Shown here: piece after piece, positions 8,170 to 33,557 of the stretch
Position numbering within the stretch: position 1 is the stretch's first letter
Layout: every line of letters starts with the position of its first letter
Translations under genes and position numbers: made by a program
Assembly (NCBI GenBank): GCA_017938215.1
Contig: JAGBBZ010000008.1
Span: 1 to 33,786, forward strand
Direction: 5' to 3'
From: Eubacterium sp.
GTDB lineage: Bacteria > Bacillota > Clostridia > Lachnospirales > Lachnospiraceae
DNA length: 33,786 bases
Notes under the pieces: model-generated
What the model saw: only the letters and a program-made list of their open reading frames with translations
The model's database searches: none
What the model was told of the DNA's origin: nothing

Positions 8170-8205
8170 TTTATATTACTTATGATAGTAGAGGAGAAAA
8201 TTACA

Positions 8206-18913: not shown

Positions 18914-21684
18914 GAGAACGAATCCCTTTAAAAGAAAATACAGAGTTACGATTTACAAATCCCGAAGGTGGTGACATGGTATTTGTGATTACGGATGTGG
19001 TCGGGGATGGTGGAAGCTGCCTTGTATATGATGGGTATTACAGAAACCATGGTGGTGGAAGAAACACGGTTCGAATTAAGGAATGTTATCCATATTCGTT
19101 GCACTTGAAACGGAAAGAAGATGGAACACTTTTCGTGGAAGATCGAGAACGTGAGGTTTTTGAAGAGTACAAATCGCGAATGCGAGATTCCTTTGACGTC
19201 ACCAACGAACTTCATGAGGCTAGTGGATTAACGAATCTCACATCTGGAGTATATGATCGATATGAAGGAAACGAAACCGTTTATGTAGTGACATCCTATG
19301 TAGAAGGAACGGCATTGTCCGATGTGACATTAGATTCACTCCAACAAGCGGTAAAAACGGTAATTAGTGTAGCAAAAAGTATTGAGAAAATCCATAGCCG
19401 TGGATATTTGTATCTGGATATCAAGCCGGAAAATATTTTGATTTATCCGGAAACGACAGAGTTAGTACAACTTTTTGACTTCGATTCTATGCTACGGTGG
19501 GACGAAGAAGATCACGTTTCGACCAGTCGGATAGCGTATTCTCAAGGGTTCGCACCATTGGAACAGAGAACAAGAAATCGAAGCGAAATCGGGAAGCACA
19601 CGGATGTATATAGTCTTGGTGCGTTATTGTTTTACTTGGTTTTTGGCAGAACGCCGAGGACGTTGGATTGTGGTGCGGAATATGATTATTCTGAAATGCA
19701 CTATGACCAGCTGTGTCAAAATCAAGTATATAAGGAGTTGACCACATTTTTTCATCACACATTACAGGTCTATGTGAAAGATCGTTATCCGGATATGCAT
19801 GAAGCAATTGAGCAATTGGAAAAGATTGCAACATGTGCAGCATTACCAGAGGTGCACGTTTGTTCTACCTATATTCCGGAACCCCAAAATGTGATTGGAC
19901 GTGAAGAGGAATGTAAAGCACTTTGGAATTGGCTTCAAAGTGGAGAAAAGGTGCTATTTGTCAGTGGAATGGGCGGGATTGGAAAGAGTACTATTGTTCG
20001 TAAATTTCTGCGGGATTATGAGGATGTATTTGATTCCATCGTGTATTTGCAATATAAGCATTCTGTAGTGGAAACCATAATCGATGATGGGGGATTTGTC
20101 ATCCGTGGTTGCGAAAAAGAGAAGGAAGAGAGCGCAGAAGAATATTTTGCTCGTAAGAAAAAAGTTGCAAAACGGTTGACGGAAAACTCGAAATCCCTAC
20201 TTATTATCGATAACTACGAAGGGATTCCGGATGAATTCTTTATGGAAATTTTGGATGTGAATTGGCGTGTGATTGTGATTACTCGGCAGGATATGAAAAA
20301 CATCGGGTATCCTTGGTACAGAGTTCAAGAATTGTCTAAGAAGAATGAATTGCGGACATTATTCGAAGCATATGCGGGAGCGCGAATCGGTGGAGAAGAC
20401 TTGCTACAATTTGAGAAAATGGTTGAAATGGTGGCAGGACATACGCTAACACTGGTGCTGATTGCAAGACAAATGGCAAAGAGTTATCTGACATTATCTG
20501 AGGCAGTACAATTGGTTCGAGAACATGGGATTGGAGCAATGGCACCGGAGAAGGTGGAGTACGTTCGAGATGGTGTGTTTGTATACGAAAAGATTTCTTC
20601 GATCATTCGAAGGATTTTTGACGTGTCGCAATTGTCTTCAGAAAAGAGAAAGTGCTTGAAACTCTTGTCTATATTTGCGCCATATGGAATTGATATTAAG
20701 GTGTTTCGGGATTTGATGGAATATGAGTCCTTTGACGATATGAATGAATTGGCGACTTTGGGGTGGCTGGAAATCCAAGATCAAATGGTGCAAATGCATC
20801 CGCTTATACAAGAGATCGTCCGACAATTGGAATGGACGGAGGAAGAGCGAAGAGTTATTCTCCGGGAGTTGGAGCATTTGCCTAAAGATCAGGAAAGCTT
20901 TCTCATCGAAAATGCGGAGCCGTTGATTGGTGCTTCGGATGATGTGGAACCGGAGAAGCGGATGGAAGTATACGATTATGTTGTGTATCTGCTCTGTCAG
21001 AAGGAAGATTATGACATGGCGAATCAATACTTAAGTCGCGCTCTGGATTTTGCTAAGAAATGGAAAAGGCATTATATCTATGGTCTCTACTACGATATGC
21101 TGGGTGATTATTATGATGCGATACTGAATGGGGCGTATGATCCTGAGGAACCAGAGGAGCGAAGATGGAGACGTGCATTGTGGAAGGCGGGACAGAAAGC
21201 AAGCTGGCATATGAAGCGGTCAAAGCATCCGAAAGCCGAGAAGCTTTGGGTGAAGTATCGTTTGAGTCATACGTTACTACTGATTCGAGGAATGCTTGGG
21301 AAACCCCGACAGATAAAGCGGTTGCTTGTGAGTGTGACAAGTAAGATTGCTCAAGATGATTGGAAACTTCTCTTTATCCTCAATATGGCATGGGCGTGGT
21401 ATTATGCCTTGTATGAAGAAAAGGAAAATGAGGTTTTTGAGTATTTATATCAGGCATACGAAATCAATGAACATCGTTTCGTAACAGATTTGGACTGGGT
21501 GGATGACTATTATATTCCGGCGGCGAATATGATGTTTGAAATAGGGGATACGGAGCAGTCGTTACAATTTTTGAAAACGGCGTATGATATTTGTTCCACT
21601 CATGAGGAAGTTGTTCCCTATGTTCGTAAGATGCAAGATCTAATATTATATCAACAAGAGGTTCAGAAGGAATCTGGTGTATAA
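18910..21684 (+). CDS. Protein kinase fused to a STAND (NB-ARC-like) NTPase with helical repeats
   Basis: A 924-aa cytoplasmic signalling protein. Residues 1-310 form a Hanks-type kinase: glycine loop G32-x-G-G-S-C-L-V, ATP lysine K57 in VRIKE, catalytic loop Y-L-D170-I-K-P-E-N175 (Tyr replaces the usual His of HRD), D190-F-D192 in place of DFG, and a KHTDVYSLGALLFYL helix. Near 331 begins an NB-ARC-type STAND ATPase with IGREEE, Walker A GMGGIGKS (353-360), Walker B SLLIID434 and a VIVITRQD sensor, followed by winged-helix and helical TPR-like repeats to the end (roughly 640-920). STAND proteins are ligand-triggered oligomeric switches whose N-terminal domain is the output, so here phosphorylation would be the output (inference). 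A terminator follows directly. No signal peptide or membrane helix is seen. Confidence 0.85.
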   Translation: MRERIPLKENTELRFTNPEGGDMVFVITDVVGDGGSCLVYDGYYRNHGGGRNTVRIKECYPYSLHLKRKEDGTLFVEDREREVFEEYKSRMRDSFDVTNELHEASGLTNLTSGVYDRYEGNETVYVVTSYVEGTALSDVTLDSLQQAVKTVISVAKSIEKIHSRGYLYLDIKPENILIYPETTELVQLFDFDSMLRWDEEDHVSTSRIAYSQGFAPLEQRTRNRSEIGKHTDVYSLGALLFYLVFGRTPRTLDCGAEYDYSEMHYDQLCQNQVYKELTTFFHHTLQVYVKDRYPDMHEAIEQLEKIATCAALPEVHVCSTYIPEPQNVIGREEECKALWNWLQSGEKVLFVSGMGGIGKSTIVRKFLRDYEDVFDSIVYLQYKHSVVETIIDDGGFVIRGCEKEKEESAEEYFARKKKVAKRLTENSKSLLIIDNYEGIPDEFFMEILDVNWRVIVITRQDMKNIGYPWYRVQELSKKNELRTLFEAYAGARIGGEDLLQFEKMVEMVAGHTLTLVLIARQMAKSYLTLSEAVQLVREHGIGAMAPEKVEYVRDGVFVYEKISSIIRRIFDVSQLSSEKRKCLKLLSIFAPYGIDIKVFRDLMEYESFDDMNELATLGWLEIQDQMVQMHPLIQEIVRQLEWTEEERRVILRELEHLPKDQESFLIENAEPLIGASDDVEPEKRMEVYDYVVYLLCQKEDYDMANQYLSRALDFAKKWKRHYIYGLYYDMLGDYYDAILNGAYDPEEPEERRWRRALWKAGQKASWHMKRSKHPKAEKLWVKYRLSHTLLLIRGMLGKPRQIKRLLVSVTSKIAQDDWKLLFILNMAWAWYYALYEEKENEVFEYLYQAYEINEHRFVTDLDWVDDYYIPAANMMFEIGDTEQSLQFLKTAYDICSTHEEVVPYVRKMQDLILYQQEVQKESGV

Positions 21685-23748: not shown

Positions 23749-23773
23749 CAATAAGTCAGAGGAAAACTAGAAT

Positions 23774-23808
23774 AAGCGACTATGTATCAAAGCGATATGT
23801 GGTCGCTT
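23774..23808 (+). terminator. Terminator hairpin, first copy of a 39-nt repeat
   Basis: Bases 23774-23788 and 23794-23808 form a 15-bp stem around the loop AAAGC; three pairs are G-U on the + strand, showing that the + strand transcript is the one selected to fold. Only a weak T-rich tail follows (GTTTACTTTA). The 39 bases 23770-23808 recur exactly at 33515-33553. Confidence 0.75.
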
Positions 23809-23831
23809 GTTTACTTTATAGGTTTAATTAT

Positions 23832-23860
23832 TTGACAAGATGAGGAAGTTATGGGAAAAT
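23832..23860 (+). promoter_or_regulatory. Possible promoter of the lipid/phosphonate cluster
   Basis: A perfect TTGACA (23832-23837) is followed after 17 bp by GAAAAT (23855-23860), a four-of-six -10. A start near 23867 would lie after the ATG at 23851, supporting translation from the later ATG at 23923. Confidence 0.4.
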
Positions 23861-23922: not shown

Positions 23923-24714
23923 ATGTACAAAACAAAAATCGCTGTTATCACAGGAGCAGCCAGCGGGATTGGACGGGCTTTGGCGTTGGAGATGGCGAAA
24001 AAAAATTGTAATCTGATTCTCGTTGATATATTTGAAAAAGGTCTGGATAAAACGATTAAAATAATTGAGAATCAGGATATTTTTGTGGAAAAACACATTG
24101 TGGATTTAAGTGAGAAAGAGCAGATACACACTTTTTCAGCGAAAATCATAGAAAAATATTCACAGATAGATTTTTTGTTCAATATCGCAGGGATTGCAGC
24201 TGGTGGTACTTTTGAGGAAATGAAAGAAGAAACTTTTGAGAGACTGATTGGTGTTAATCTTATGAGTCAAGTATATTTGATGAAAGATTTTATACCACGA
24301 ATGAAAAAAGAAGAAACAACCTACATTGTCAATATGTCTAGCTTAAATGGAAAGGCGGCATTTGCAGAGCAGAGTGCTTATTCTGCAAGTAAGTTTGCGG
24401 TGCGTGGAGTATCCAATGCCATTGCGTATGAAATTTCGGACAGCAATATTCAGATGTCCGTTCTTTATCCAGGAGCTGTCCGTACCAACATTGTACGAAA
24501 TGCCATTCCGGCTAGTGCACGGGATATTTCTGCGAAACATACAACGATAGCAAAAGGAATGGATGCCACAAGAGCGGCCCGGATCATCCTGAAGGGAATA
24601 AAAAAAGGCAAACGTGATATCGTGGTAGGAAGAGATGCTCATTTGGTATTGTTCTTAAAACATTTTTTCCCTATTAGGTATTGGGATATGATTAAGAGAA
24701 ACATACATTTGTAA
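23923..24714 (+). CDS. Short-chain dehydrogenase/reductase (SDR)
   Basis: A 263-aa classical SDR, an NAD(P)-dependent oxidoreductase of hydroxyl/keto groups. The cofactor loop T-G-A-A-S-G-I-G lies at residues 10-17, NIAG follows in the fourth strand, and the catalytic residues are Ser in NMSSLNG, Y153 and K157 in YSASK. The substrate-loop segment LYPGAVRTNIVR is typical. The acidic VDIF at the end of strand 2 suggests NAD preference (inference). The start at 23923 is chosen because the Rossmann fold begins right after it and AAAAGGAGA lies upstream; an in-frame ATG at 23851 with GAGGAAG would add 24 residues. As first gene of the cluster it could reduce a keto-lipid intermediate, such as an acyl-dihydroxyacetone or 3-keto species, but this is unproven. 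Confidence 0.88.
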   Translation: MYKTKIAVITGAASGIGRALALEMAKKNCNLILVDIFEKGLDKTIKIIENQDIFVEKHIVDLSEKEQIHTFSAKIIEKYSQIDFLFNIAGIAAGGTFEEMKEETFERLIGVNLMSQVYLMKDFIPRMKKEETTYIVNMSSLNGKAAFAEQSAYSASKFAVRGVSNAIAYEISDSNIQMSVLYPGAVRTNIVRNAIPASARDISAKHTTIAKGMDATRAARIILKGIKKGKRDIVVGRDAHLVLFLKHFFPIRYWDMIKRNIHL

Positions 24715-24771
24715 TTTGCCAGAAACTTGCAAATATTGCTAAGATATAATAAAATACTTAAAAATAGAAAC

Positions 24772-25434
24772 ATGGTGATATCATTGAAAAAACAGAGTAC
24801 ATTTTTGTATCGATTTGTGCGTTTTACATGCAAACCGCTTCTTATCTTACTTTTTCGTCCTAAAATCATCGGACGGGAGTATATTCCAACCAGCGGTAAT
24901 GCAGTGATTGCAGGGAATCATAAACATGCATTGGATCCGCTACTTGTGGATATTAGCACGAACAGGATTGTGCGCACCCTTGCCAAAAAGGAGCTACATG
25001 ATGGGATATTTGGCTTTGCTTTCCGAGGTGTCGGATCCATTCCGGTTGATCTGCATAGTAAGGAAAACAAGGAAGCATTGGCTGCAGCAGTAGAGGTCTT
25101 GCGAGAGGGAAATGTGATTAATGTTTCGCCGGAAGCGAAGCGCAATTACACCGATGAGCTATTATTACCCTTTAAGTATGGGGCGGTGTCCATGGCAAAG
25201 AAGACAGGGGCTCCCATTATCCCCTATGCCATTACTGGAGATTATAAATGCTGTGCCGGCAATCTGACCATACGTTTTGGAGAACCGATTTATGTCGGCG
25301 ATAGGGACTTATATGATGCAAATAAGGAACTGTATCATACGATTCTGGAACTTATGATTTCCATTACGGACAAGTCGATTTTGGATGCAAAGCACATTAC
25401 AACTTTTGAAGAATGGAGTAAAAAACATGAATAA
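24772..25434 (+). CDS. PlsC-like 1-acylglycerol-3-phosphate O-acyltransferase family protein
   Basis: A 220-aa acyltransferase of the PlsC/LPLAT superfamily, which transfers fatty acyl groups to glycerol-phosphate-type hydroxyls at the membrane. The catalytic HxxxxD motif is H50-K-H-A-L-D55. Block II is present around RGVGSIPVDL. Block III, normally P-E-G-T-R, reads P120-E-A-K-R124, so the Gly-Thr is replaced; the PYAITG block IV is conserved. A hydrophobic segment near the N-terminus could anchor it. The start is uncertain: ATG 24772 has no good ribosome site, while TTG 24784 follows GGTGAT. A consensus -10 (TATAAT, 24745-24750) lies in the 57-bp gap after the SDR gene. Its stop overlaps the next start by 8 nt. 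It probably acylates the lipid precursor used downstream. Confidence 0.88.
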   Translation: MVISLKKQSTFLYRFVRFTCKPLLILLFRPKIIGREYIPTSGNAVIAGNHKHALDPLLVDISTNRIVRTLAKKELHDGIFGFAFRGVGSIPVDLHSKENKEALAAAVEVLREGNVINVSPEAKRNYTDELLLPFKYGAVSMAKKTGAPIIPYAITGDYKCCAGNLTIRFGEPIYVGDRDLYDANKELYHTILELMISITDKSILDAKHITTFEEWSKKHE

Positions 25435-27079
25435 ACCTAGACATTTAGAATATCCGGATTGTTCTATATACGAATTTCTGGAAGAGAATGCAAAGAGTTA
25501 TCCAACGCTTTGTGCCTTGAACTATTATTCAAGGGAAATGACATATCGTGAATTGCTGAAAGAGATTGATCAAGCAGCGAAGGCGTTTGTGGCGATGGGA
25601 ATTGAAAAAGGGGATGCAGTTACCATCTGCTTACCGAATGTTCCCCAGGCTGTGATTTCCTTTTATGCCATTAACAAAATTGGAGCTATCGCGAACATGA
25701 TTCATCCCATGTCGGCAGAAAAAGAAATCATTCATTATCTTTCTATTTCCAAGAGTAAGGTAATAATTGCACTGGATATGGTTTGGAAAAAACTGGAAGG
25801 GGTTCTTGGAAAAACAGAAGTTCAGCATACCATTCTTGTGTCCGTGAAAGAATATATGCCATTTTCAATGAAGCTGGTGTATACACTTGCGAGGGAGAAG
25901 AAGGTAACGGTTCCAGATGCTATTTATAATTGGCGTAGTTTCAACGAGCTTGCGAAGAAGGTGGACAAGGATGTTCATGTTGCGGGGAAGAGTAATGAGT
26001 GTGCGGTGATTCTTTACAGCGGTGGTACTACAGGAAAACCCAAAGGAATTATGCTCTCAAACTTGAATTTTAACGCTCTTGCGATGCAGGGAATCGATGG
26101 TTGCTCGGATTGTTTGTATGAAGGAGCAAGAGTATTATCTGTAATGCCGGTATTTCATGGATTCGGACTTGGAGTGTGCATTCATACCGTATTAAACTTT
26201 GGTGGTATGGCGATTATCTTGCCACAGTTTAATGCTGCGGAATACGATAAATTATTGATAAAGTACAAGCCAAATGTCATTGCAGGTGTACCTGCTATCT
26301 ATGAAAGTCTCATTCGAAGTACATACATTGCCGGAAAGGATCTTTCTTTCTTGACATGTGTCATATCCGGTGGGGATTCCATGGCGGTGAATACAAAGAA
26401 AAAGTTAAATGAACTTTTGGCAAATCAAGGTTCCAAGACTACGGTGAAGGAAGGTTATGGACTGACAGAGTGTGTAACTGGAACTTGTTCCATGCCGGCA
26501 GGTTCAAAAAATCTGGAAAGTATCGGTTTGCCTTATGCAGATATGTTTTATATGATTGCAGATCCGGAAAGTGGCGAAGAACTTCCATACGGTGAAGAGG
26601 GAGAAATTGTCATGCGAGGTCCTACCGTGATGCTTGGATATTTAAATGAGCCGGAAGAGACAGCGAACACATTGCGAGTGCATAAAGATGGACACACATG
26701 GTTACATACAGGGGATCTTGGATGTATGGACGAGGAAGGATATGTGTATTTTAAACAACGCTTGAAACGAATGATCGTGTCAGGGGGATACAATATTTAT
26801 CCGCAGCTTCTTGAAGATGTTATATGTTCTCACGAACAAGTGGTGACTTGTGCAGTGGTTGGCGTTCCGGATGAAATCATGGGACAAAAAGTAAAAGCAT
26901 ATGTGGTTCTAAAAAAAGGAGTTACCGAACAAGAACAGGTGAAGGAAGAGCTCACAGAACGTTTAAAACAAGATATTGCAAAGTACGCGCTTCCGCGTGA
27001 AATTGTGTTTATGGAGTCTCTGCCCAAAACCTTGGTCGGGAAGATTGCATACGATGAGTTGATTAAGGGGGAGGAGTAG
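25427..27079 (+). CDS. Long-chain fatty acyl-CoA/acyl-AMP ligase (AMP-binding family)
   Basis: A 550-aa class I adenylate-forming enzyme, activating a carboxylic acid with ATP to acyl-AMP and then probably acyl-CoA. Motifs in order: P-loop SGGTTGKPKG from residue 198, GYGLTEC, HTGDLG, the hinge KQRLKRMIVSGGYNIYP, and catalytic K539 in PKTLVGKIAYDEL. The N-terminal part (LCALNYYSREMTYREL and ITICLPNVPQAVISFYAINKIGA) resembles FadD-type fatty acid ligases. No fused carrier or thioesterase domain is present and no acyl carrier protein gene is nearby, so CoA is the likely acceptor. The ATG at 25427 has GGAG about 8 nt upstream and overlaps the acyltransferase gene. In the cluster it would supply activated fatty acid to the acyltransferases (inference). 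Confidence 0.9.
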   Translation: MNKPRHLEYPDCSIYEFLEENAKSYPTLCALNYYSREMTYRELLKEIDQAAKAFVAMGIEKGDAVTICLPNVPQAVISFYAINKIGAIANMIHPMSAEKEIIHYLSISKSKVIIALDMVWKKLEGVLGKTEVQHTILVSVKEYMPFSMKLVYTLAREKKVTVPDAIYNWRSFNELAKKVDKDVHVAGKSNECAVILYSGGTTGKPKGIMLSNLNFNALAMQGIDGCSDCLYEGARVLSVMPVFHGFGLGVCIHTVLNFGGMAIILPQFNAAEYDKLLIKYKPNVIAGVPAIYESLIRSTYIAGKDLSFLTCVISGGDSMAVNTKKKLNELLANQGSKTTVKEGYGLTECVTGTCSMPAGSKNLESIGLPYADMFYMIADPESGEELPYGEEGEIVMRGPTVMLGYLNEPEETANTLRVHKDGHTWLHTGDLGCMDEEGYVYFKQRLKRMIVSGGYNIYPQLLEDVICSHEQVVTCAVVGVPDEIMGQKVKAYVVLKKGVTEQEQVKEELTERLKQDIAKYALPREIVFMESLPKTLVGKIAYDELIKGEE

Positions 27080-27084
27080 AACCA

Positions 27085-28425
27085 ATGGATACCAAGAAGA
27101 GGTTTCTGCTGGTTCATCCGGAGATTTCCCGTACAAAATACAATTTTGCCGGGGTAATTGACAATGAGCCACTGGAACTTGAGTACATCGTGGCGATGCT
27201 GAAAGAGGCGGGATATGAAGTGGCAATCTGGGATGGCCAGGTGGAAACGATACCTCTTACCGAAAAAGTGGCAAGTTATCGTCCGGATTTTGTATATGTA
27301 TGCGGGCGGACTCGTCAGGAAAATTTTATGAAGGAATACTGTAAGGCGGCCAAGGAGATGTGTGGCAGTATCACAATGATTGGTGGACTTCATTCACAAC
27401 ATAATTACGAGAGATTTTATGAGGACTATATCGATTATGTCCTCATAACCTTTGATGTCTACAAAATTCTGGATGTTGTGCAGGGAGCGATACTTGCGGA
27501 CATGGATGGTATTTGCTACAAGCTGGAGAATGAGTGGGTAAAAAATGAACCCGTTGCCTTTGATATCGAGAAGTTGCCAAAACCAGACCGGACCTATTTC
27601 TATGAACATTTGGAGCGATACCGTTATCTGGAACTGCTGCCCTGTGCACATGTTCGAACGGCATATAGTTGTCCTTATCGATGCAAGTTTTGCTATCGTA
27701 ACCGCTTGAATTGTGGTGTTTATACATCGCGAAGTATTGTCTCTGTCGTGGAGGAAATTAAAGAAATTCAGTGCGAAAATATTTATATCATCGACGATGA
27801 TTTTCTTGTGGATGTAGAGCGAATTCGAGAATTTATCCGGTTGATCAAAGAGCAAAATATTCACAAGAAATATGTATGTTATGGTAGGGCGGATTTTATT
27901 TCCCAGTACCCCGATTTGATAATGGAACTTAAGGACATTGGGTTTTACTATATTCTTGTGGGGCTGGAAGCCATTGATGATCGGTATCTTTCAGAATATA
28001 ATAAGCATTCGGATATGTCATGCAACACAAACGCTGTTCGGATTTTAAATGAAGTCGGCATAAATATTATGGGAATGTTTATCGTAGATTTGGACTTCAC
28101 AGCGCGAGATTTTTCACGACTATACAAGTGGATCAAGGCGCATAGGTTAAAGCATACAGCGATTTCCATCTTTACTCCGGAAATGTCGTCAGAGCTTATG
28201 ATACAATATGAGAGTCGATTGATTACGGACAACCCGGAGGCATGGGATTATCTTCATGTGGTGGCGAAGCCGACGAAAATGAGTGTGGGTAGATTTTATT
28301 TTCATTATCATATTCTTGGGATAAAACTATTCATCAAAGGGTGGAGTGAAGGAATCTATGACTTTTTGGACTATGGATATTATATAAAATCTTTCCTAAA
28401 GAACTTATTCCGATTTGGTGGATGA
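27085..28425 (+). CDS. Radical SAM enzyme with B12-binding-type N-terminal domain
   Basis: A 446-aa protein of the group with an N-terminal cobalamin-binding-type fold (about 1-135: LLVHPEISRTKYNF, LEYIVAMLKEAGYEVAIWDG, then YVCGRT and MIGGLHSQ) and a radical SAM barrel. The 4Fe-4S ligands are C196, C200 and C203 in SCPYRCKFCYR. Later barrel strands include IIDDDFLVD and ILVGLEAIDD. The architecture is shared with hopanoid and lipid-modifying enzymes, phosphonate methylases and others; bound cobalamin is not certain because the classical DxHxxG motif is not evident. It could act on the lipid tail or on the phosphonate carbon. The start has GGAGGAG upstream, and the gene follows the ligase gene by 5 nt. 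The last ~60 residues are hydrophobic/aromatic, consistent with a membrane-bound substrate. Confidence 0.85.
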   Translation: MDTKKRFLLVHPEISRTKYNFAGVIDNEPLELEYIVAMLKEAGYEVAIWDGQVETIPLTEKVASYRPDFVYVCGRTRQENFMKEYCKAAKEMCGSITMIGGLHSQHNYERFYEDYIDYVLITFDVYKILDVVQGAILADMDGICYKLENEWVKNEPVAFDIEKLPKPDRTYFYEHLERYRYLELLPCAHVRTAYSCPYRCKFCYRNRLNCGVYTSRSIVSVVEEIKEIQCENIYIIDDDFLVDVERIREFIRLIKEQNIHKKYVCYGRADFISQYPDLIMELKDIGFYYILVGLEAIDDRYLSEYNKHSDMSCNTNAVRILNEVGINIMGMFIVDLDFTARDFSRLYKWIKAHRLKHTAISIFTPEMSSELMIQYESRLITDNPEAWDYLHVVAKPTKMSVGRFYFHYHILGIKLFIKGWSEGIYDFLDYGYYIKSFLKNLFRFGG

Positions 28426-28454
28426 TTTTATCCTAAGGGAGAGGACGAAGACAA

Positions 28455-29126
28455 ATGAGTACAACAAAAACAAATTCCGTGAAGAAAATAATTCCGAGTA
28501 AATTGGAAACAGGGTTTCAGCAGTTTTTATATAAACATGTTGGGAAATACATCCCAGCGTCTATGACACCGAATCAGGTAACAATGATTGGTGCGTTGGG
28601 TGGACTTTTTGCCATTATATGCACACTTCTTACTCATATTTCATTCTGGTTTTTTATCGGTACTATAGTAGGAATTCTGGTGCATCTGATTGCAGATGAT
28701 TTGGATGGCTATGTGGCACGTAGTCGAAATATGTCCTCACAAGCAGGAGCGTATTTTGATCTTATTACAGATGTGTTATTTTCTACATTTTTTCTTGTTG
28801 CATTTGGTTTGTCTCCTTATGCCAGTATCGAGCTTGTGGCATTTGCGGCACCGGTATATGGGATAATCAATGTGACAGCCATGAACTACATCATATATTG
28901 CAATGAATTTTTGTTTCCTCGAATCGGTCCCATTGAAGCGCATATGATGTATGTGGCAGTGGCGATTCTAAGCATGATCTTTCATACAGGGCCGATATTT
29001 ATCTTGTTTGGATTTGAGATCATGATTGCGGATGTTATCGTGATTGTTGGATTGATTCCTACATATTATGAGATGATTCGCTTGGAAGTACAGTTGTTTC
29101 GAAGATTGAAGGAAAAGGAAAAATGA
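28455..29126 (+). CDS. CDP-alcohol phosphatidyltransferase
   Basis: A 223-aa integral membrane enzyme of the CDP-alcohol phosphotransferase family, joining a CMP-activated group to an alcohol with release of CMP. The full signature DxxDGxxAR-x8-GxxxDxxxD is intact: D81, D84, G85, A88-R89, G98, D102 and D106, the residues that bind metal and nucleotide. About six transmembrane segments are visible. The conserved MTPNQVTMIGALGG entry helix is present. In this cluster the activated partner is probably CMP-phosphonate made by the last gene, and the acceptor a diacylglycerol-like lipid, by analogy with choline/ethanolamine phosphotransferases (inference); CDP-diacylglycerol as donor is the alternative. 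AGGGAGAGGA lies upstream, and the stop overlaps the next start (ATGA). Confidence 0.92.
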   Translation: MSTTKTNSVKKIIPSKLETGFQQFLYKHVGKYIPASMTPNQVTMIGALGGLFAIICTLLTHISFWFFIGTIVGILVHLIADDLDGYVARSRNMSSQAGAYFDLITDVLFSTFFLVAFGLSPYASIELVAFAAPVYGIINVTAMNYIIYCNEFLFPRIGPIEAHMMYVAVAILSMIFHTGPIFILFGFEIMIADVIVIVGLIPTYYEMIRLEVQLFRRLKEKEK

Positions 29127-29770
29127 AACATATTTACATTGTTCTGATTAAGGCGCATACCGGATTGGGGAAATTTGCAAGAATGTTTTCGAAGTATGAT
29201 TATACACATATCGCAGTGAGTCTCGATTCAAGTCTTACGGATTTTGTTACCTATTCTCGAAGAAGGCATTATCTTCCCTTGGATGCTGGTTTCATGCACG
29301 AATACCGGGACTATTATGCATTTGGAAGGCATTCGAAGGTAAAGGTGAAGGTGTTTGACCTTCCGGTGGAAGAGCATTGTTATGAAGATGTTCTACGATT
29401 TATCTCTTCCTGTGAAGGGGATGAAGAGCAGAAGTTTAATTTGTTTTCTATGGTGACAATGTCCATTTTTCACGGCTTTCGAATTTATAAAGCCCATAAC
29501 TGTATGTCGTTTTGCGGAAGGGTAATACAACTTACAGGTGTAATAAGTATGGAAAAACCATACTACAAATATTCCATTCAAGAGATGGATGCACTTTTGG
29601 AAAAAAATTTTTATTTCGAAGGGATGCTAAAGCGAAAAAGTTCTCCCGACTATGATAACTACATGAAAAGGGGATCTATTTGGGAACTTATTCGGACAGG
29701 AAGCAATACGATATTTACATTGATTAAGCGGATGATCTTTGATCGAAGCAGAATAGAGGATGAAGGATGA
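29123..29770 (+). CDS. Permuted NlpC/P60 (LRAT/YiiX-like) thiol enzyme, putative lipid acyltransferase or hydrolase
   Basis: A 215-aa protein that reads as a circularly permuted papain-fold enzyme: a histidine comes first, H29 in DYTHIAVSLD, and the nucleophile later, N126-C127-M-S-F-C in AHNCMSFCGRVIQLTG. This His-then-NC order is that of the LRAT/YaeF/YiiX branch, whose characterised members (LRAT, HRASLS) act on acyl groups of lipids. No signal peptide is seen. The C-terminus has a short hydrophobic segment near NTIFTLIKRMIF that may attach to the membrane. Starts and stops overlap both neighbours by ATGA. The likely role is transacylation or deacylation of the lipid product (inference); peptidase or amidase activity cannot be excluded. 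The family assignment is from motif order only. Confidence 0.65.
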   Translation: MKHIYIVLIKAHTGLGKFARMFSKYDYTHIAVSLDSSLTDFVTYSRRRHYLPLDAGFMHEYRDYYAFGRHSKVKVKVFDLPVEEHCYEDVLRFISSCEGDEEQKFNLFSMVTMSIFHGFRIYKAHNCMSFCGRVIQLTGVISMEKPYYKYSIQEMDALLEKNFYFEGMLKRKSSPDYDNYMKRGSIWELIRTGSNTIFTLIKRMIFDRSRIEDEG

Positions 29771-30666
29771 GGAAAAAAATTTCTACAGAGGCCAGACGTG
29801 GTTGGCTTCGACGATTATTGGCGGAGAAAGAGTATCTTCGCGTGATCGAGACGGTTAGTGGGTTGGAAGGTTTGATTGCAGAGTCTGTTTCTACCTGTGA
29901 TGAAGAGGGAAGGGAAATGGGATTTGATGCACTTTGGCTCAGTGGCTTGTGTCATGCGGCATTGAAAGGGAAACCGGATAACGAACTTGTGGATATGTCA
30001 GAAAAATATGTGACCATCAACGAAATTTTTGATGTAACGACAAAGCCTTTGATTGTGGATTGCGACACCGGAGGATTGTTGGAACATTTCTGTCATCATG
30101 TTTCTACACTTGAACGTCTAGGGGTATCGGCGGTGGTTGTGGAAGACAAAAAAGGACGAAAGCGAAATTCCCTATATGGATGTGAACAGATACATGAGAT
30201 GGAGGACGTCGATGTTTTTGCGGAGAAAATACGATGTGCAAAAAATGTTCTTTGCACGGTGGATTTTATGATTTTCGCCCGGATTGAAAGTCTGATTGCC
30301 GGAGAAGATGTATGTGTGGCATTGGAACGTGCAGGACAGTATGTCGCGGCAGGTGCAGATGGAATTGTGATTCATAGTGCCTCGGCAGATGGAAATGAAA
30401 TATTTGAATTTGCGGAGGTATTTAAGAATCAATACCCAGATGTTCCTCTTGTTTTTATCCCCACGACATATCATCACTTTACTGCTACTAAGTTGCACGA
30501 AAAAGGGGCAGACATAATTATTTATGCGAATCAATTGATGCGAAGTGCGTATTTTGCTATGGAGCAGACAGCAATGTCTATTTTAAGTGAGGGAAAAAGT
30601 GAGTATGCGGATAAGCATTATTGTGCCCCGGTAAAAACAATTCTTAATCTGATTGATGGTGAATGA
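29767..30666 (+). CDS. pepM: Phosphoenolpyruvate mutase
   Basis: Predicted to rearrange phosphoenolpyruvate to phosphonopyruvate, forming the C-P bond; this is the entry step of nearly all phosphonate biosynthesis. The 299-aa product is a TIM-barrel of the isocitrate lyase/PEP mutase superfamily. The diagnostic PEP mutase motif EDKxGxKxNS is complete at E126-D-K-K-G-R-K-R-N134-S135. Metal-binding D98-x-D100 in VDCDTGG and D71 in the KPDNE loop sit where I recall D85/D87 and D58 in the mussel enzyme. The segment GFDALWLSG (52-60) matches the family's G-F/x-x-W-x-SG. The motif separates it from carboxyphosphonoenolpyruvate mutase and phosphonopyruvate hydrolase. Start and stop overlap both neighbours by ATGA. 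Confidence 0.92.
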   Translation: MRKKISTEARRGWLRRLLAEKEYLRVIETVSGLEGLIAESVSTCDEEGREMGFDALWLSGLCHAALKGKPDNELVDMSEKYVTINEIFDVTTKPLIVDCDTGGLLEHFCHHVSTLERLGVSAVVVEDKKGRKRNSLYGCEQIHEMEDVDVFAEKIRCAKNVLCTVDFMIFARIESLIAGEDVCVALERAGQYVAAGADGIVIHSASADGNEIFEFAEVFKNQYPDVPLVFIPTTYHHFTATKLHEKGADIIIYANQLMRSAYFAMEQTAMSILSEGKSEYADKHYCAPVKTILNLIDGE

Positions 30667-31778
30667 ATATGATAAATACAAAACAATTTGTAGATTATTT
30701 ACTTGGAAATGGACTTGAGTTTTTTGCAGGAGTTCCTGATTCGTTACTGAAAAATCTGTGTGCATGTGTGCAGGATGTCTGTGATTCTAAGCACAATATC
30801 ACAGCAGCCAATGAAGGAAATGCGGTGGGACTCGCTTGTGGATATCATCTTGCCACAGGAAAATATGGTGTTGTGTATATGCAGAATTCAGGGATTGGAA
30901 ATGTGGTGAATCCCTTGGTCTCTCTCGCAGATGAAGAGGTATACAAAATTCCGATGCTTCTTCTTGTGGGGTGGCGGGGAGAACCCGGAGTGCCGGATGA
31001 ACCCCAGCATAAAAAGCAAGGAAAAATCACGTGGGAACTCTTTGAAACTATGGGAATCAAAACAATTCTCTTAGAGGATGATTATGAACACATTATCCGA
31101 GATGCTGTAGAATATATGACGCGACATGGAAAGCCGGTAGCGTTGATTGTTCGAAAAAGCACGTTCAGTGAATATCAATATTCTAAAGAGTCGGTGGAAT
31201 ATTCCATGACGCGCGAGCGAGCGTTAGAGGTAATTGTGAATCATGTTAATGGTGACGATATCCTTGTATCTACGACAGGGAAAACGTCTCGTGAGCTTTT
31301 CGAGTTGCGAGAACGACAGGGAATGGGACATGCCAATGATTTTCTGACGGTTGGCTCGATGGGACATACTTCGTCCATTGCATTGGGGGTTAGCTTGTTT
31401 TCGGACAGACGAGTCTATTGTATTGACGGAGATGGCTCTTTTTTGATGCATATGGGGGCTTGTGCTGTCAATGCAAATGCCATGGGTGACAACTTCCGTT
31501 ATATTATTATTAACAATGGTGCTCACGAGTCTGTAGGTGGTCAACCAACCGTTGGATTTCATGTCCGTATGCAAGAGATATTAAAAGATTGCGGATTTGA
31601 ACGTGTATACACTGCGCGAGAAGAAGAAGAGGTGGAAGAGGGGATGCGATACTTGGCTACCCATACAAAATCAGCGATGGTGGTATGTGTGCGACAAGGC
31701 TCCCGTGAGAATTTGGGAAGACCAACCTTGTCACCACAGGAGAATAAACGGCGATTAATGGAGAATTTGTTAAAATGA
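30663..31778 (+). CDS. ppd: Phosphonopyruvate decarboxylase (thiamine diphosphate enzyme)
   Basis: Converts phosphonopyruvate to phosphonoacetaldehyde and CO2, the irreversible step that pulls the unfavourable PEP mutase reaction forward. The 371-aa product has the compact layout of this family: an N-terminal pyrimidine-binding domain with E51 in AANEGNAVG, the segment MQNSGIGNVVNPLVSL, and a C-terminal diphosphate-binding domain with GDGS (256-259) and the NNG metal motif in IIINNGAHESVGGQP. The middle domain of larger thiamine enzymes such as acetolactate synthase is absent, as expected. The start has an ATGA overlap with pepM; a second ATG at 30669 is two codons in. Position directly after pepM is the usual order in phosphonate clusters. 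Confidence 0.93.
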   Translation: MNMINTKQFVDYLLGNGLEFFAGVPDSLLKNLCACVQDVCDSKHNITAANEGNAVGLACGYHLATGKYGVVYMQNSGIGNVVNPLVSLADEEVYKIPMLLLVGWRGEPGVPDEPQHKKQGKITWELFETMGIKTILLEDDYEHIIRDAVEYMTRHGKPVALIVRKSTFSEYQYSKESVEYSMTRERALEVIVNHVNGDDILVSTTGKTSRELFELRERQGMGHANDFLTVGSMGHTSSIALGVSLFSDRRVYCIDGDGSFLMHMGACAVNANAMGDNFRYIIINNGAHESVGGQPTVGFHVRMQEILKDCGFERVYTAREEEEVEEGMRYLATHTKSAMVVCVRQGSRENLGRPTLSPQENKRRLMENLLK

Positions 31779-33520
31779 AAGCACTGATTTTTAATTCCGG
31801 CACGGGAAGTCGGATGGGGAGTATGACAGAGCATGGTCCGAAATGCCTGTTACAACTGAAAACTGGTGAGAGTATATTTGCCCGCCAGTTGCGAATACTT
31901 GCGGAGTGTGGAATTACGGAAGTGATTGTCACCACAGGAGAATACGAACAGGACTTGCAAGAGGAAAGCAAGAAGGTACAGAATATCACGGTTATGTATG
32001 TAAATAACCCAGAGTATGCAACAACAAATTATATTTATTCGATGTATCTTGCCAGCGAATATCTGGATGATGATATTTTAATGCTGCATGGAGATCTGGT
32101 TTTTAATAAAGAGTTGGTACAGGAGATACAATCGGATAAAAACTCTTCCGTCTGTCTGATCAACAAGAATATCAGTCAGCCACCAAAGGATTTTAAAGGC
32201 AGGATTTCAGAAGAGGGATATCTTCGTGAGGTTTCCGTGAATATATTTGATGAAGATTGTTATGCCCTTCAACCATTATACAAGTTGTCGAAGCATTGTG
32301 TGACAAGCTGGCTTGATGAAATTCGAAGATTTGTGGAACAAGGCATAACGAATGTGTATGCAGAGAACGCACTGAATCTCATTTCGGACAAGTTAAATAT
32401 CTGTGCAATGTCGTACGAGAAGCACTATATTAACGAAATTGATACACCTGAGGATTTTGTGCGCGTGAGTCGAGAAATATCACTGGTTGAGAGTGGTGTC
32501 TATTTTTCTATATGTGCAATGAACCAGTTATGGGAGCGATACAAGGCAAAACGTCCTTTTGTCGTTATGGGAAGGCATCTTGCAGGTAGTGAGCTGGATC
32601 TTTGGTTGGATTCTTTGGAAATAAAGGTGTATAAATATTTTGGAGTGATGGAAAATCCTGAGTATGAATGTGTTATGTCTGCCAGACAAGCGTTTGAGGA
32701 GCATGATGGTGACATGTTGATTTCCGTCGGTGGAGGAAGTGCCATCGATATTGCAAAAGGAATCAAGTATTATCTGATGCAAAAAGAGGAATCATGGAAG
32801 GGGCTTGTGCATATCGCCATACCAACCACGGCTGGCTCGGGAAGTGAAGCGACGCATTTTGCTGTGATGTATCGGGACGGAATCAAGGATTCACTTGCAA
32901 ATGAAGCACTGTTGCCACAGCATGCAATTCTTGATGTTCGAATGCTATACAGTCTTAGTGAAGAACAGCGAAAAATTTCTTTGCTTGATGCATTTTGTCA
33001 TAGTATCGAAAGTATACTGTCACGCAATGCTACAGACGAAAGTAGAAGATATGCAGTATGTGCAATTAACATCATATCACAAAAATACCAAGCGTTCTGT
33101 GACGGAGAAACAGAAGTATTCCAAGACATATTTGTTGCGACACATCTGGCAGGGAAGGCGATTGATATATCAAAAACGACAGTGGGACATGCCATGAGTT
33201 ATGTATTGACATCACTGTATGGGATCAAGCATGGACAAGCGGTGGCGATGTGCTTGATTCAAGCGCTAAAGTATATGGAAGAGAACAATCCAGATACGAC
33301 GGAACTGGCGCATTTGCGAGAGTTGCTGTCAGTAAAGGAAGAAAGTATTGCCCAGTATCTGATGTCGATGTATCGGACAATGGATCTTCCCCAACCGGAT
33401 TTAGAACGTGCAGATGCGGTGCTATTAGCGAAAGAAGTGAACGTGGAACGGCTGAGTAATTCTGTTGTGAGTTTTTCGGAGAAGGATTTGCAGGAGATAT
33501 ATCAGAAGGTGAAGGAATAA
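31775..33520 (+). CDS. Nucleotidyltransferase fused to iron-type alcohol dehydrogenase (phosphonate reduction and CTP activation)
   Basis: A 581-aa two-domain protein. Residues ~1-235 form a sugar-nucleotidyltransferase-like domain similar to choline-phosphate and aminoethylphosphonate cytidylyltransferases (PntC): FNSGTGSRMG nucleotide loop, PKCL lysine, metal Asp in LHGDLVF and NEIDTPEDF. Residues ~245-581 are a group III iron-type alcohol dehydrogenase: GGGS from 319, IPTTAGSGSEAT, and ligands D405, H409, H472 and H486, with exactly the spacing of E. coli FucO (+4, +63, +14). Next to pepM and ppd the dehydrogenase half should reduce phosphonoacetaldehyde to 2-hydroxyethylphosphonate, and the transferase half should activate it with CTP. 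The fused form would channel the product to the CDP-alcohol transferase. The ATG overlaps the ppd stop. The stop codon lies inside the 39-nt repeat and the terminator stem starts 1 nt into it. Confidence 0.85.
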   Translation: MKALIFNSGTGSRMGSMTEHGPKCLLQLKTGESIFARQLRILAECGITEVIVTTGEYEQDLQEESKKVQNITVMYVNNPEYATTNYIYSMYLASEYLDDDILMLHGDLVFNKELVQEIQSDKNSSVCLINKNISQPPKDFKGRISEEGYLREVSVNIFDEDCYALQPLYKLSKHCVTSWLDEIRRFVEQGITNVYAENALNLISDKLNICAMSYEKHYINEIDTPEDFVRVSREISLVESGVYFSICAMNQLWERYKAKRPFVVMGRHLAGSELDLWLDSLEIKVYKYFGVMENPEYECVMSARQAFEEHDGDMLISVGGGSAIDIAKGIKYYLMQKEESWKGLVHIAIPTTAGSGSEATHFAVMYRDGIKDSLANEALLPQHAILDVRMLYSLSEEQRKISLLDAFCHSIESILSRNATDESRRYAVCAINIISQKYQAFCDGETEVFQDIFVATHLAGKAIDISKTTVGHAMSYVLTSLYGIKHGQAVAMCLIQALKYMEENNPDTTELAHLRELLSVKEESIAQYLMSMYRTMDLPQPDLERADAVLLAKEVNVERLSNSVVSFSEKDLQEIYQKVKE

Positions 33521-33557
33521 GCGACTATGTATCAAAGCGATATGTGGTCGCTTTTTG
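33519..33557 (+). terminator. Terminator of the phosphonate cluster, second copy of the 39-nt repeat
   Basis: The same 15-bp stem as at 23774-23808, here at 33519-33553, followed by five T including the last stem bases, so it is the better terminator of the two. It overlaps the last two bases of the stop codon TAA. Confidence 0.85.

What the first reader, a model, noticed from the sequence alone, without database searches (positions are those of the whole stretch)
23923..33520. Nine-gene cluster predicted to make a membrane phosphonolipid
PEP mutase, phosphonopyruvate decarboxylase, an alcohol dehydrogenase, a nucleotidyltransferase and a CDP-alcohol phosphatidyltransferase sit together with an acyl ligase, two acyltransferase-like enzymes, an SDR and a radical SAM enzyme. 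The known precedent is the CMP-aminoethylphosphonate route to phosphonolipids in protists such as Tetrahymena, using a CDP-alcohol-type transferase. A dedicated bacterial cluster that couples phosphonate headgroup synthesis to lipid assembly genes is, as far as I know, not characterised. Most bacterial phosphonates with a cytidylyltransferase are thought to be attached to glycans through LicD-like transferases, and no such gene is here.
Basis: partly seen in the sequence, partly recalled or inferred. Interest (0 to 1): 0.92.

Follow-up and report, generated by a model that had tools for sequence, protein, structure and literature searches.

The report
Clostridial gene cassette for phosphonate lipids
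An eight-gene set, kept in the same order in several families of Clostridia, looks built to make a rare phosphorus-carbon headgroup and join it to a membrane lipid; the genes and their order are solid, but the product is a prediction and related (different) clusters have been predicted before.

Summary
The genes are real and at the stated place. Eight of the nine (PlsC, acyl ligase, B12-radical SAM, CDP-alcohol transferase, an unnamed Cys-His protein, PEP mutase, phosphonopyruvate decarboxylase, fused cytidylyltransferase-iron alcohol dehydrogenase) recur in the same order in five other Clostridia genomes; the SDR does not. Three further genomes carry the lipid half with differently built PEP-mutase genes, or with PEP mutase on another contig. 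So the cluster is two modules: headgroup and lipid. The headgroup is predicted to be 2-hydroxyethylphosphonate (HEP), not aminoethylphosphonate: an alcohol dehydrogenase replaces the transaminase, and a cytidylyltransferase pocket residue is His in all 23 readable dehydrogenase-linked loci, Glu in the only 2 readable transaminase-linked ones. Among solved structures the transferase ranks nearest to choline/ethanolamine phosphotransferases; curated bacterial models instead rank inositol-phosphate enzymes first, all far below cut-off. Best reading: CMP-HEP plus a diacylglycerol-type acceptor gives a HEP phosphonolipid, with acyl remodelling and a B12-radical step of unknown target. New here: HEP chemistry, the extra lipid genes, the Clostridia, the modularity. 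No chemistry is shown.

The parts
23770..23811 (+). left copy of a 42-nt repeat that folds as a terminator-like hairpin
   Evidence: 98% identical to 33515-33556; only 2 copies in the 68% complete genome held, up to 3 mismatches in a 39-base pattern; folding z-score -7.3
23832..23860 (+). promoter-like TTGACA-17-GAAAAT with extended TG, ahead of the cluster
   Evidence: consensus scan only, 10 of 12; 39 sites found in the region against 30.7 in shuffles
23923..24714 (+). A: short-chain dehydrogenase/reductase, inside the repeats but not conserved with the cluster
   Evidence: PF00106 162.5 bits; no match in 8 related loci
24727..25434 (+). B: PlsC-like acyltransferase, HX4D intact
   Evidence: PF01553 83.8 bits; only PDB match 1-acyl-glycerol-3-phosphate acyltransferase 5kym; in 8 of 8 related loci
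25427..27079 (+). C: long-chain fatty-acid-CoA-ligase-like AMP-binding enzyme
   Evidence: PF00501 259.6 bits; best PDB match FadD-1 3g7s; in 7 of 8 related loci
27085..28425 (+). D: B12-binding radical SAM enzyme, CxxxCxxC intact; target unknown (acyl chain, lipid or CMP-HEP)
   Evidence: PF04055, PF02310; best NCBIfam match HpnR 130.9 bits, below its 650 cut-off; weak PDB matches OxsB, AprD4; in 8 of 8 related loci
28455..29126 (+). E: CDP-alcohol phosphatidyltransferase, predicted CMP-phosphonate:diacylglycerol phosphonotransferase
   Evidence: PF01066 46.7 bits; full motif; PDB profile matches CHPT1/CEPT1 best, NCBIfam ranks inositol-phosphate synthases first but far below cut-off; in 8 of 8 related loci
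29123..29770 (+). F: unnamed Cys-His protein, possibly a permuted papain-like (YiiX/LRAT-type) acyl hydrolase or transferase
   Evidence: no Pfam/NCBIfam match; H29, R46, E60, N106, C127, F130 invariant in 28 aligned members; fold link only weak; in 8 of 8 related loci
29767..30666 (+). G: phosphoenolpyruvate mutase (PepM/Ppm)
   Evidence: TIGR02320 just over cut-off; EDKKGRKRNS
30663..31778 (+). H: phosphonopyruvate decarboxylase (Ppd)
   Evidence: TIGR03297 455.7 bits, over cut-off
31775..33520 (+). I: fusion of PntC/LicC-type cytidylyltransferase (N-terminal, about 1-235) and iron-containing alcohol dehydrogenase (C-terminal), predicted to make HEP and then CMP-HEP
   Evidence: PF12804, PF00465, PF25137; profile matches PntC-AEPT 6pd1 5e-17 and LicC 1jyk 2e-13, and iron alcohol dehydrogenases; His105
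33515..33556 (+). right copy of the 42-nt repeat, terminator-like, overlapping the end of gene I
   Evidence: folding z-score -5.3

Best explanation
The cluster is a two-module cassette for a HEP-type phosphonolipid. Headgroup module: PepM makes phosphonopyruvate from PEP, Ppd makes phosphonoacetaldehyde, the dehydrogenase domain reduces it to 2-hydroxyethylphosphonate (HEP), and the fused PntC domain makes CMP-HEP. Lipid module: the CDP-alcohol transferase moves HEP from CMP-HEP to a diacylglycerol-type acceptor. PlsC, the acyl-CoA ligase and the Cys-His protein F are read as acyl supply or remodelling (F releases an acyl chain, C activates it, B puts it back). The B12-radical SAM enzyme modifies the lipid or the headgroup. 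Shown: gene families, intact motifs, conserved order, recurrence of the lipid module with different phosphonate genes. Inferred from family knowledge: the reactions of PepM, Ppd, dehydrogenase and PntC. Inference: HEP as headgroup, diacylglycerol as acceptor, every role given to B, C, D and F.
For: Order B-C-D-E-F-PepM-Ppd-PntC/ADH kept in L011, L013, L014, L029, L035 at 37-75% identity. The lipid module recurs with other phosphonate genes: L149 (G644) has B-D-E-F, a membrane-protein-like gene (LysE-like by eye), then a PntC-cytidylyltransferase-PepM fusion, ADH and Ppd; L123 (G292) has B-C-D-E-F then a cytidylyltransferase-PepM fusion. E was found in 3 of 391 class genomes, all three with PepM. 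Close D (E below 1e-200) was found in 4 of 295 order genomes, all four with PepM, against 28 of 295 with PepM overall (hypergeometric 6.6e-5, or 7e-4 without the query genome). PDB profile of E: CHPT1 1.2e-6 and CEPT1 1.6e-6 over nearly the whole domain, PssA 0.004 and PgsA 0.17. HEP rather than AEP: no transaminase among the nine proteins; PntC residue 105, which I place at Glu104 of Tde-PntC, a residue positioned to bind the AEP amine (PMC6697681, passages), is His in 23 of 23 distinct loci that have an ADH match and a readable PntC, and Glu in the 2 transaminase-linked loci where it can be read.
Against: NCBIfam ranks E nearest to archaetidylinositol phosphate synthase (42.2 bits, cut-off 180) and phosphatidylinositol phosphate synthase (37.6, cut-off 170), which by general knowledge use CDP-lipid donors; pgsA 25.5 and pssA 24.7 follow lower down. 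In PDB the CDP-inositol enzyme 4mnd is close behind (1.7e-5). In G185 the lipid module B-F stands alone; the genome's PepM lies on another contig, beside genes that look glycan-related, with no ADH match in the 19 kb seen, so the module may accept another headgroup. The His105 test is confounded by ancestry: the ADH-linked PntCs are one related group, the Glu loci match PntC only weakly (42 and 66 bits), 16 of 19 transaminase loci have no PntC match at all, L031 falls in a gap, and L034 has Glu with no transaminase found. Three of the four PepM co-occurrences are the linkage itself. No chemical data exist.
Confidence: 0.55

Rival explanations
1. Fosfomycin-like variant (a sub-reading of the phosphonolipid model): D is a Fom3-like methylase that turns CMP-HEP into CMP-2-hydroxypropylphosphonate, and E then transfers the methylated phosphonate to the lipid. 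The product is a hydroxypropylphosphonate lipid.
For: The early gene set (PepM, Ppd, Fe-ADH, cytidylyltransferase, B12-radical SAM) is that of the fosfomycin route: Fom1, Fom2 and FomC to 2-HEP-CMP, then methylation by Fom3 (PMC8158854, passages; which Fom enzyme is the dehydrogenase is recalled). D has B12-binding and radical SAM domains and weak matches to methylases HpnR and PhpK.
Against: Close D homologues follow E and F, not the CMP-HEP genes: of 80 decarboxylase loci, the 5 with close D are the 5 with E and F, while other PepM-Ppd-PntC-ADH loci lack it within the stretches fetched. More distant D homologues occur in 8 order genomes, none among the 28 with PepM. Fom3 itself could not be compared (no sequence at hand).
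Confidence: 0.2
2. Acyl-chain reading of D (also compatible with the phosphonolipid model): a HpnR-like methylase or chain-modifying radical SAM enzyme acting on the fatty acyl part, so that both headgroup and tail are unusual.
For: Best NCBIfam match of D is the hopanoid methylase HpnR (130.9 bits); D stays with the lipid module where phosphonate genes differ or are absent. A distant D set (L126) has an acyl ligase nearby.
Against: All scores are far below the curated cut-offs; superfamily membership does not fix a substrate.
Confidence: 0.4
3. E transfers the phosphonate to a non-lipid or other acceptor (glycan precursor, inositol phosphate), giving a phosphonoglycan or small molecule; the acyl genes serve another lipid.
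For: E also matches CDP-inositol:inositol-phosphate transferase 4mnd. Phosphonoglycans are one of the two products predicted for most bacterial phosphonate clusters, the other being phosphonolipids (PMC6697681, passages). The same genome has a second PepM locus in a glycan-like setting (by eye).
Against: PlsC and F stay with E in 8 of 8 related loci, the ligase in 7 of 8; no glycosyltransferase or LicD was recognised among the nine proteins.
Confidence: 0.2
4. Two separate pathways that happen to be neighbours: E makes an ordinary phospholipid from a CDP-lipid such as CDP-diacylglycerol.
For: The NCBIfam models nearest to E are inositol-phosphate synthases of the CDP-lipid-using kind, below cut-off. 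E was the only PF01066 match found in this 68% complete genome; the module stands alone in G185.
Against: Repeated association with three phosphonate gene arrangements; weak PDB matches to PssA and PgsA.
Confidence: 0.15

Closest known systems
Predicted phosphonolipid clusters of lichen Nostoc and Burkholderia (PMC5987646, passages, adapted there from Yu et al. 2013, which is not held)
   Same: pepM, ppd, an NTP transferase and a CDP-alcohol phosphatidyltransferase together; read as phosphonolipid synthesis
   Different: the legend seen also lists an AEP aminotransferase, a 2-oxoglutarate oxidase and hpnL; here an iron alcohol dehydrogenase fused to the cytidylyltransferase, and PlsC, acyl ligase, B12-radical SAM and protein F instead
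Pantoea ananatis pgb phosphonate cluster (PMC9933511, passages)
   Same: phosphonate cluster with a CDP-alcohol phosphatidyltransferase
   Different: carries an AEP transaminase, asnB, glyA and others; no acyl or radical SAM genes in the listing seen
Fosfomycin pathway of Streptomyces, Fom1, Fom2, FomC, Fom3 (PMC8158854, passages)
   Same: route to 2-HEP-CMP and a B12-radical SAM enzyme
   Different: no FomD or Fom4 recognised here; a CDP-alcohol transferase instead; product predicted lipid-bound
PntC-AEPT of Treponema denticola (PMC6697681, passages; PDB 6pd1/6pd2)
   Same: LicC-type cytidylyltransferase fused to an enzyme of phosphonoacetaldehyde
   Different: partner is an iron alcohol dehydrogenase, not a transaminase; His at the Glu104 position
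Eukaryotic choline/ethanolamine phosphotransferases CHPT1/CEPT1
   Same: family motif and best PDB profile match
   Different: E is about half as long; donor predicted CMP-phosphonate; remote similarity only
Bacteriovorax stolpii sphingophosphonolipids (named in PMC5648825, passage)
   Same: a phosphonolipid reported from a bacterium
   Different: sphingolipid; no link to this gene set was tested

Membership tests
bacterial PepM + CDP-alcohol-transferase (predicted phosphonolipid) clusters | PEP mutase with EDKxxxxxNS | tested here: met
bacterial PepM + CDP-alcohol-transferase (predicted phosphonolipid) clusters | phosphonopyruvate decarboxylase and nucleotidyltransferase in the cluster | tested here: met
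bacterial PepM + CDP-alcohol-transferase (predicted phosphonolipid) clusters | CDP-alcohol phosphatidyltransferase with complete motif, linked to pepM in other genomes too | tested here: met
bacterial PepM + CDP-alcohol-transferase (predicted phosphonolipid) clusters | AEP transaminase (AEP headgroup), as listed for the Nostoc/Burkholderia type | tested here: not met
   no aminotransferase among the nine proteins; tblastn with a Rhizobium AEPT gave no match of 60 bits or more near the window's pepM
bacterial PepM + CDP-alcohol-transferase (predicted phosphonolipid) clusters | phosphonate found in the lipid fraction | not testable with these tools
   needs 31P NMR or lipidomics
fosfomycin-type HEP-CMP methylation | PepM, Ppd, Fe-ADH, cytidylyltransferase and B12-radical SAM together | tested here: met
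fosfomycin-type HEP-CMP methylation | radical SAM enzyme orthologous to Fom3 | not tested
   no Fom3 sequence was available; no model named for Fom3 among the NCBIfam matches of D
fosfomycin-type HEP-CMP methylation | FomD hydrolase and Fom4 epoxidase | tested here: not met
   nothing of the kind recognised among the nine proteins
CHPT/CEPT-type, diacylglycerol-accepting transferases | ranks above CDP-diacylglycerol-using enzymes in comparison by profile | tested here: inconclusive
   PDB: 1.2e-6 and 1.6e-6 against PssA 0.004 and PgsA 0.17; but NCBIfam ranks inositol-phosphate synthases first, below cut-off, and no eukaryotic CHPT/CEPT model appeared there
CHPT/CEPT-type, diacylglycerol-accepting transferases | clearly separated from CDP-inositol:inositol-phosphate enzymes | tested here: inconclusive
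   4mnd at 1.7e-5, 28.1 bits against 32.0
PntC AEP cytidylyltransferases | LicC/PntC-type nucleotidyltransferase | tested here: met
   profile 6pd1 5e-17, 1jyk 2e-13; single sequence 1jyk 2e-9, 6pd1 1e-6 after two sugar nucleotidyltransferases
PntC AEP cytidylyltransferases | acidic residue at the Tde Glu104 position, which contacts the amine of AEP | tested here: not met
   His105; register read by me from the alignments and the numbering
YiiX/C92 or LRAT-like permuted papain fold (protein F) | conserved His before conserved Cys (order recalled) | tested here: met
   H29 and C127 invariant in 28 of 28 aligned members
YiiX/C92 or LRAT-like permuted papain fold (protein F) | profile or fold match | tested here: inconclusive
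   no sensible Pfam match in 6 members; hhalign probability 0.3-11%, E 0.0026-0.18 to C92 proteins against E 0.065-0.81 for six controls
LicD-type phosphonoglycan clusters | LicD or glycosyltransferase with the cluster | tested here: not met
   none recognised among the nine proteins

The most novel reading that the evidence does not exclude
A portable clostridial cassette in which a B12-radical SAM enzyme methylates CMP-HEP, or the lipid, before or after a Kennedy-type transferase loads it on diacylglycerol: a doubly modified hydroxyalkyl-phosphonolipid with its own acyl-remodelling enzymes, its lipid half swapped between genomes with different phosphonate-making genes.
Probability: 0.27. Interest if true: 0.82.

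Novelty: new variant of a known kind. Interest (0 to 1): 0.6.

Why it matters
Gene clusters for bacterial phosphonolipids have been predicted; in the passages I saw, none was shown by experiment to make the lipid. This cassette is compact, repeated in several lineages and carries an acyltransferase-ligase-transferase set with intact motifs, so it makes the question testable in one heterologous host. If true, some Clostridia (two of the five full relatives are, by record title, from animal gut) carry membrane lipids whose headgroup is held by a carbon-phosphorus bond, which resists cleavage of the phospholipase D type (general knowledge; PMC5987646 says regular phospholipases do not cleave phosphonolipids). 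The His/Glu position in PntC could also become a sequence rule for telling HEP from AEP pathways.

Tried and rejected
SDR as part of the unit: rejected, no match in the fetched stretches of the 8 related loci. Recent foreign island judged by base composition: not supported, G+C 40.8% inside the repeats against 41.8% before them (that script crashed after printing these values). Mobility: the 42-nt repeat brackets the genes exactly and occurs only twice in the genome held, but it folds as a terminator; no integrase was recognised among the 17 window proteins run against Pfam (not all ORFs of the window); and no empty site was found: 2 of 38 other genus genomes matched the flank, only over the small DUF6591 gene, with no cluster in the short stretches fetched. 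Insertion is possible, not shown. Protein F as a recognised acyltransferase: not confirmed. Plasmid search for a comparable PepM + transferase cluster: four regions opened, none had both annotated. A first radical-SAM motif scan had a faulty filter and was redone. Literature: searches returned nothing relevant in the rows listed; 83 and 18 pointed to the fosfomycin papers; others gave the other papers cited. No search found this gene set described, but the library lacks most subscription journals.

On checking the draft I added a result against my reading that it left out (NCBIfam ranking of E) and the transaminase loci without a PntC match; for the first I lowered the best explanation from 0.60 to 0.55, raised the ordinary-phospholipid rival from 0.10 to 0.15, lowered the novel case from 0.30 to 0.27 and the interest from 0.62 to 0.60.

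Rows dropped: the first look at L011-L090 covers the best 80 of 127 relatives. In some searches, 91 sequences were examined; 8 without a PepM match were skipped; of 34 with an ADH match 10 had no PntC match, and L121, a second fetch of the L035 cluster, was not counted; of 19 with a transaminase match 16 had no PntC match. Of the 8 genomes with only distant D, 5 were fetched. The order searches used the same request and gave 295 genomes each; I did not check the two lists genome by genome.

Full report
What is there. The window is a whole contig (C1, 33,786 bases) of a 68% complete genome. That genome shares its family with G261, whose contig of 295,811 bases has the same length and cluster as a Faecalimonas contig (L035); Faecalimonas is in the Lachnospiraceae, so the host most likely is too. 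Nine ORFs, 23923-33520, all on the plus strand and almost gapless, give SDR, PlsC, acyl ligase, B12-radical SAM, CDP-alcohol transferase, an unnamed protein F, PEP mutase, phosphonopyruvate decarboxylase and a cytidylyltransferase-iron alcohol dehydrogenase fusion. PEP mutase (narrowly) and decarboxylase pass NCBI's curated cut-offs. Motifs are intact.

Is it a unit? Of 80 loci kept from a genome scan with the decarboxylase, 5 (L011, L013, L014, L029, L035) carry B to I in the same order at 37-75% identity. By record title they come from Oscillospiraceae (two), Ruminococcus, Lachnospiraceae and Faecalimonas genomes; two titles name a gut site. Three more came from whole-genome searches: L122 (G185) has B-F alone, L123 (G292) B-F plus a cytidylyltransferase-PepM fusion, L149 (G644) B-D-E-F, a membrane-protein-like gene, a PntC-cytidylyltransferase-PepM fusion, ADH and Ppd. 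In L149 B, D, E and F keep 48-68% identity while PepM keeps 46% and is built differently. The simplest reading is two modules that have been joined more than once. The SDR was matched in none of the 8.

How rare and how linked? Transferase E: 3 of 391 class genomes and 1 of 188 genomes in the order of G644, that one being G644 itself; all three class genomes have PepM. Close D: 4 of 295 order genomes, all with PepM, while PepM is in 28 of 295. Eight further genomes have only distant D homologues (three matches each in 7, one in G237), and none of the eight is among the 28 with PepM. None of the 36 same-genus genomes searched has an F match at E 0.001 or better.

Headgroup. No transaminase is in the cluster; the dehydrogenase fused to PntC should make HEP (family knowledge). 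The PntC structure paper places Glu104 and Glu196 near the amine of AEP (PMC6697681, passages). By the alignments (my own reading of the register, because the LicC alignment ends at this point and a second alignment fixes it) Glu104 corresponds to His105 here and Glu196 to Glu197. His105 holds in 23 of 23 distinct loci with an ADH match near PepM and a readable PntC; 10 more ADH loci have no PntC match. Among 19 transaminase loci only 3 have a PntC match: two have Glu (L041, L064, both weak matches) and one (L031) falls in a gap. L034 has Glu with no transaminase detected; 18 loci with neither enzyme, all Nitrospira or Nitrospiraceae by title and weak matches, have Tyr. This supports HEP but is not independent of ancestry.

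Transfer to lipid. Among solved structures the profile of E matches CHPT1 and CEPT1 best (1.2e-6, 1.6e-6), then a CDP-inositol enzyme (1.7e-5), and the CDP-diacylglycerol users PssA and PgsA poorly (0.004, 0.17). Against this, the curated NCBIfam models rank archaetidylinositol phosphate synthase (42.2 bits) and phosphatidylinositol phosphate synthase (37.6 bits) first, both far below their cut-offs, and pgsA and pssA at about 25 bits. So E belongs to none of the named bacterial families, and its donor is not settled by sequence. The acceptor is inferred mainly from the neighbours: PlsC in 8 of 8 and acyl ligase in 7 of 8 loci. E is the only PF01066 protein found in this incomplete genome.

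F and D. F has an invariant His29 and Cys127 in 28 aligned members, with Arg46, Glu60, Asn106 and Phe130. A link to the C92/YiiX fold is suggested by the order His then Cys, but profile comparison is weak and one of its values overlaps the controls. In L151 an F-like gene lies directly before a ligase 46% identical to C, in a genome (G404) without a PepM match. This is the basis for the remodelling idea: F releases an acyl chain, C activates it, B re-attaches it. D is a B12-radical SAM enzyme whose best curated match, HpnR, is far below cut-off; the nearest solved structures, OxsB and AprD4, are remote. The early gene set is that of the fosfomycin route to 2-HEP-CMP, which Fom3 methylates (PMC8158854, passages), so a methylated headgroup is a live rival. 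But D follows the lipid module, not the CMP-HEP genes, which leans towards a lipid target.

Prior work. A paper on Nostoc describes clusters with pepM, ppd, an NTP transferase and a CDP-alcohol phosphatidyltransferase, with a homologous Burkholderia cluster, as synthesis of phosphonate lipids, and calls such clusters well studied (PMC5987646, passages, citing Yu et al. 2013, which is not held). PMC6697681 states that most putative bacterial clusters were predicted to encode phosphonoglycans and phosphonolipids (passages). A Pantoea cluster also has the transferase (PMC9933511, passages). A paper on actinomycetes speaks of 2-hydroxy-phosphonoacetate as a possible alternative phosphonolipid headgroup in Burkholderia (PMC12723261, passages). 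A sphingophosphonolipid of Bacteriovorax stolpii is named in PMC5648825 (passage). So the kind is known as a prediction; the HEP chemistry, the added lipid genes, the Clostridia and the modularity are what I found no description of in searches.

Surroundings. A 42-nt hairpin repeat brackets the nine genes exactly (23770-23811 and 33515-33556, 98% identical, 2 copies in the genome held). It may be a duplicated terminator left by insertion, but base composition does not differ and no empty site was found. The genome has a second PEP-mutase locus (C14, L094) with ADH and Ppd next to a glycosyltransferase-like and a flippase-like gene (labels by eye), so it may make both a phosphonoglycan and a phosphonolipid.

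Verdict. Confidence in a HEP-type phosphonolipid: 0.55.

Noticed in passing
23770-23811 and 33515-33556: Exact bracketing of the cluster by a 42-nt terminator-like repeat found only twice in the genome held; possible trace of insertion.
   Followed up: partly
L094:8116-12407 (G000:C14): Second PEP-mutase locus in the same genome: PntC-cytidylyltransferase-PepM fusion, ADH and Ppd in a setting that looks glycan-related.
   Followed up: partly
L124, L125, L126, L127, L128: Sets of three to four tandem D-like B12-radical SAM genes with a methyltransferase-like gene (label by eye); in L126, where Pfam was run, also an acyl ligase and one GNAT over its cut-off plus one below. None of these genomes is among those with PepM. 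Function unknown.
   Followed up: partly
L151:7408-9832: F-like gene directly before a C-like acyl ligase in a genome without a PepM match: a two-gene pair outside the phosphonate setting.
   Followed up: no
L172:9142-15314 (G185:C17): PepM locus with an epimerase, a DUF6564 protein (a family that gene I of the window also matches, below cut-off), a dehydrogenase-like protein and Ppd; possibly another phosphonate route.
   Followed up: partly
242-1768 and 8182-10005: Same contig carries a PPK2-type polyphosphate kinase with two domains and a Na+/Pi cotransporter with PhoU domains.
   Followed up: no
17687-21684: A 408-aa protein without Pfam match (at 1e-5) next to a 924-aa kinase-like protein that resembles PD-T4-6 defence kinases, probably through its kinase domain.
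   Followed up: no
L029 and L035, dehydrogenase domain: The presumed iron-ligand His after DAxC (role recalled) is Gln in these two clusters (DALCQ), by eye.
   Followed up: no
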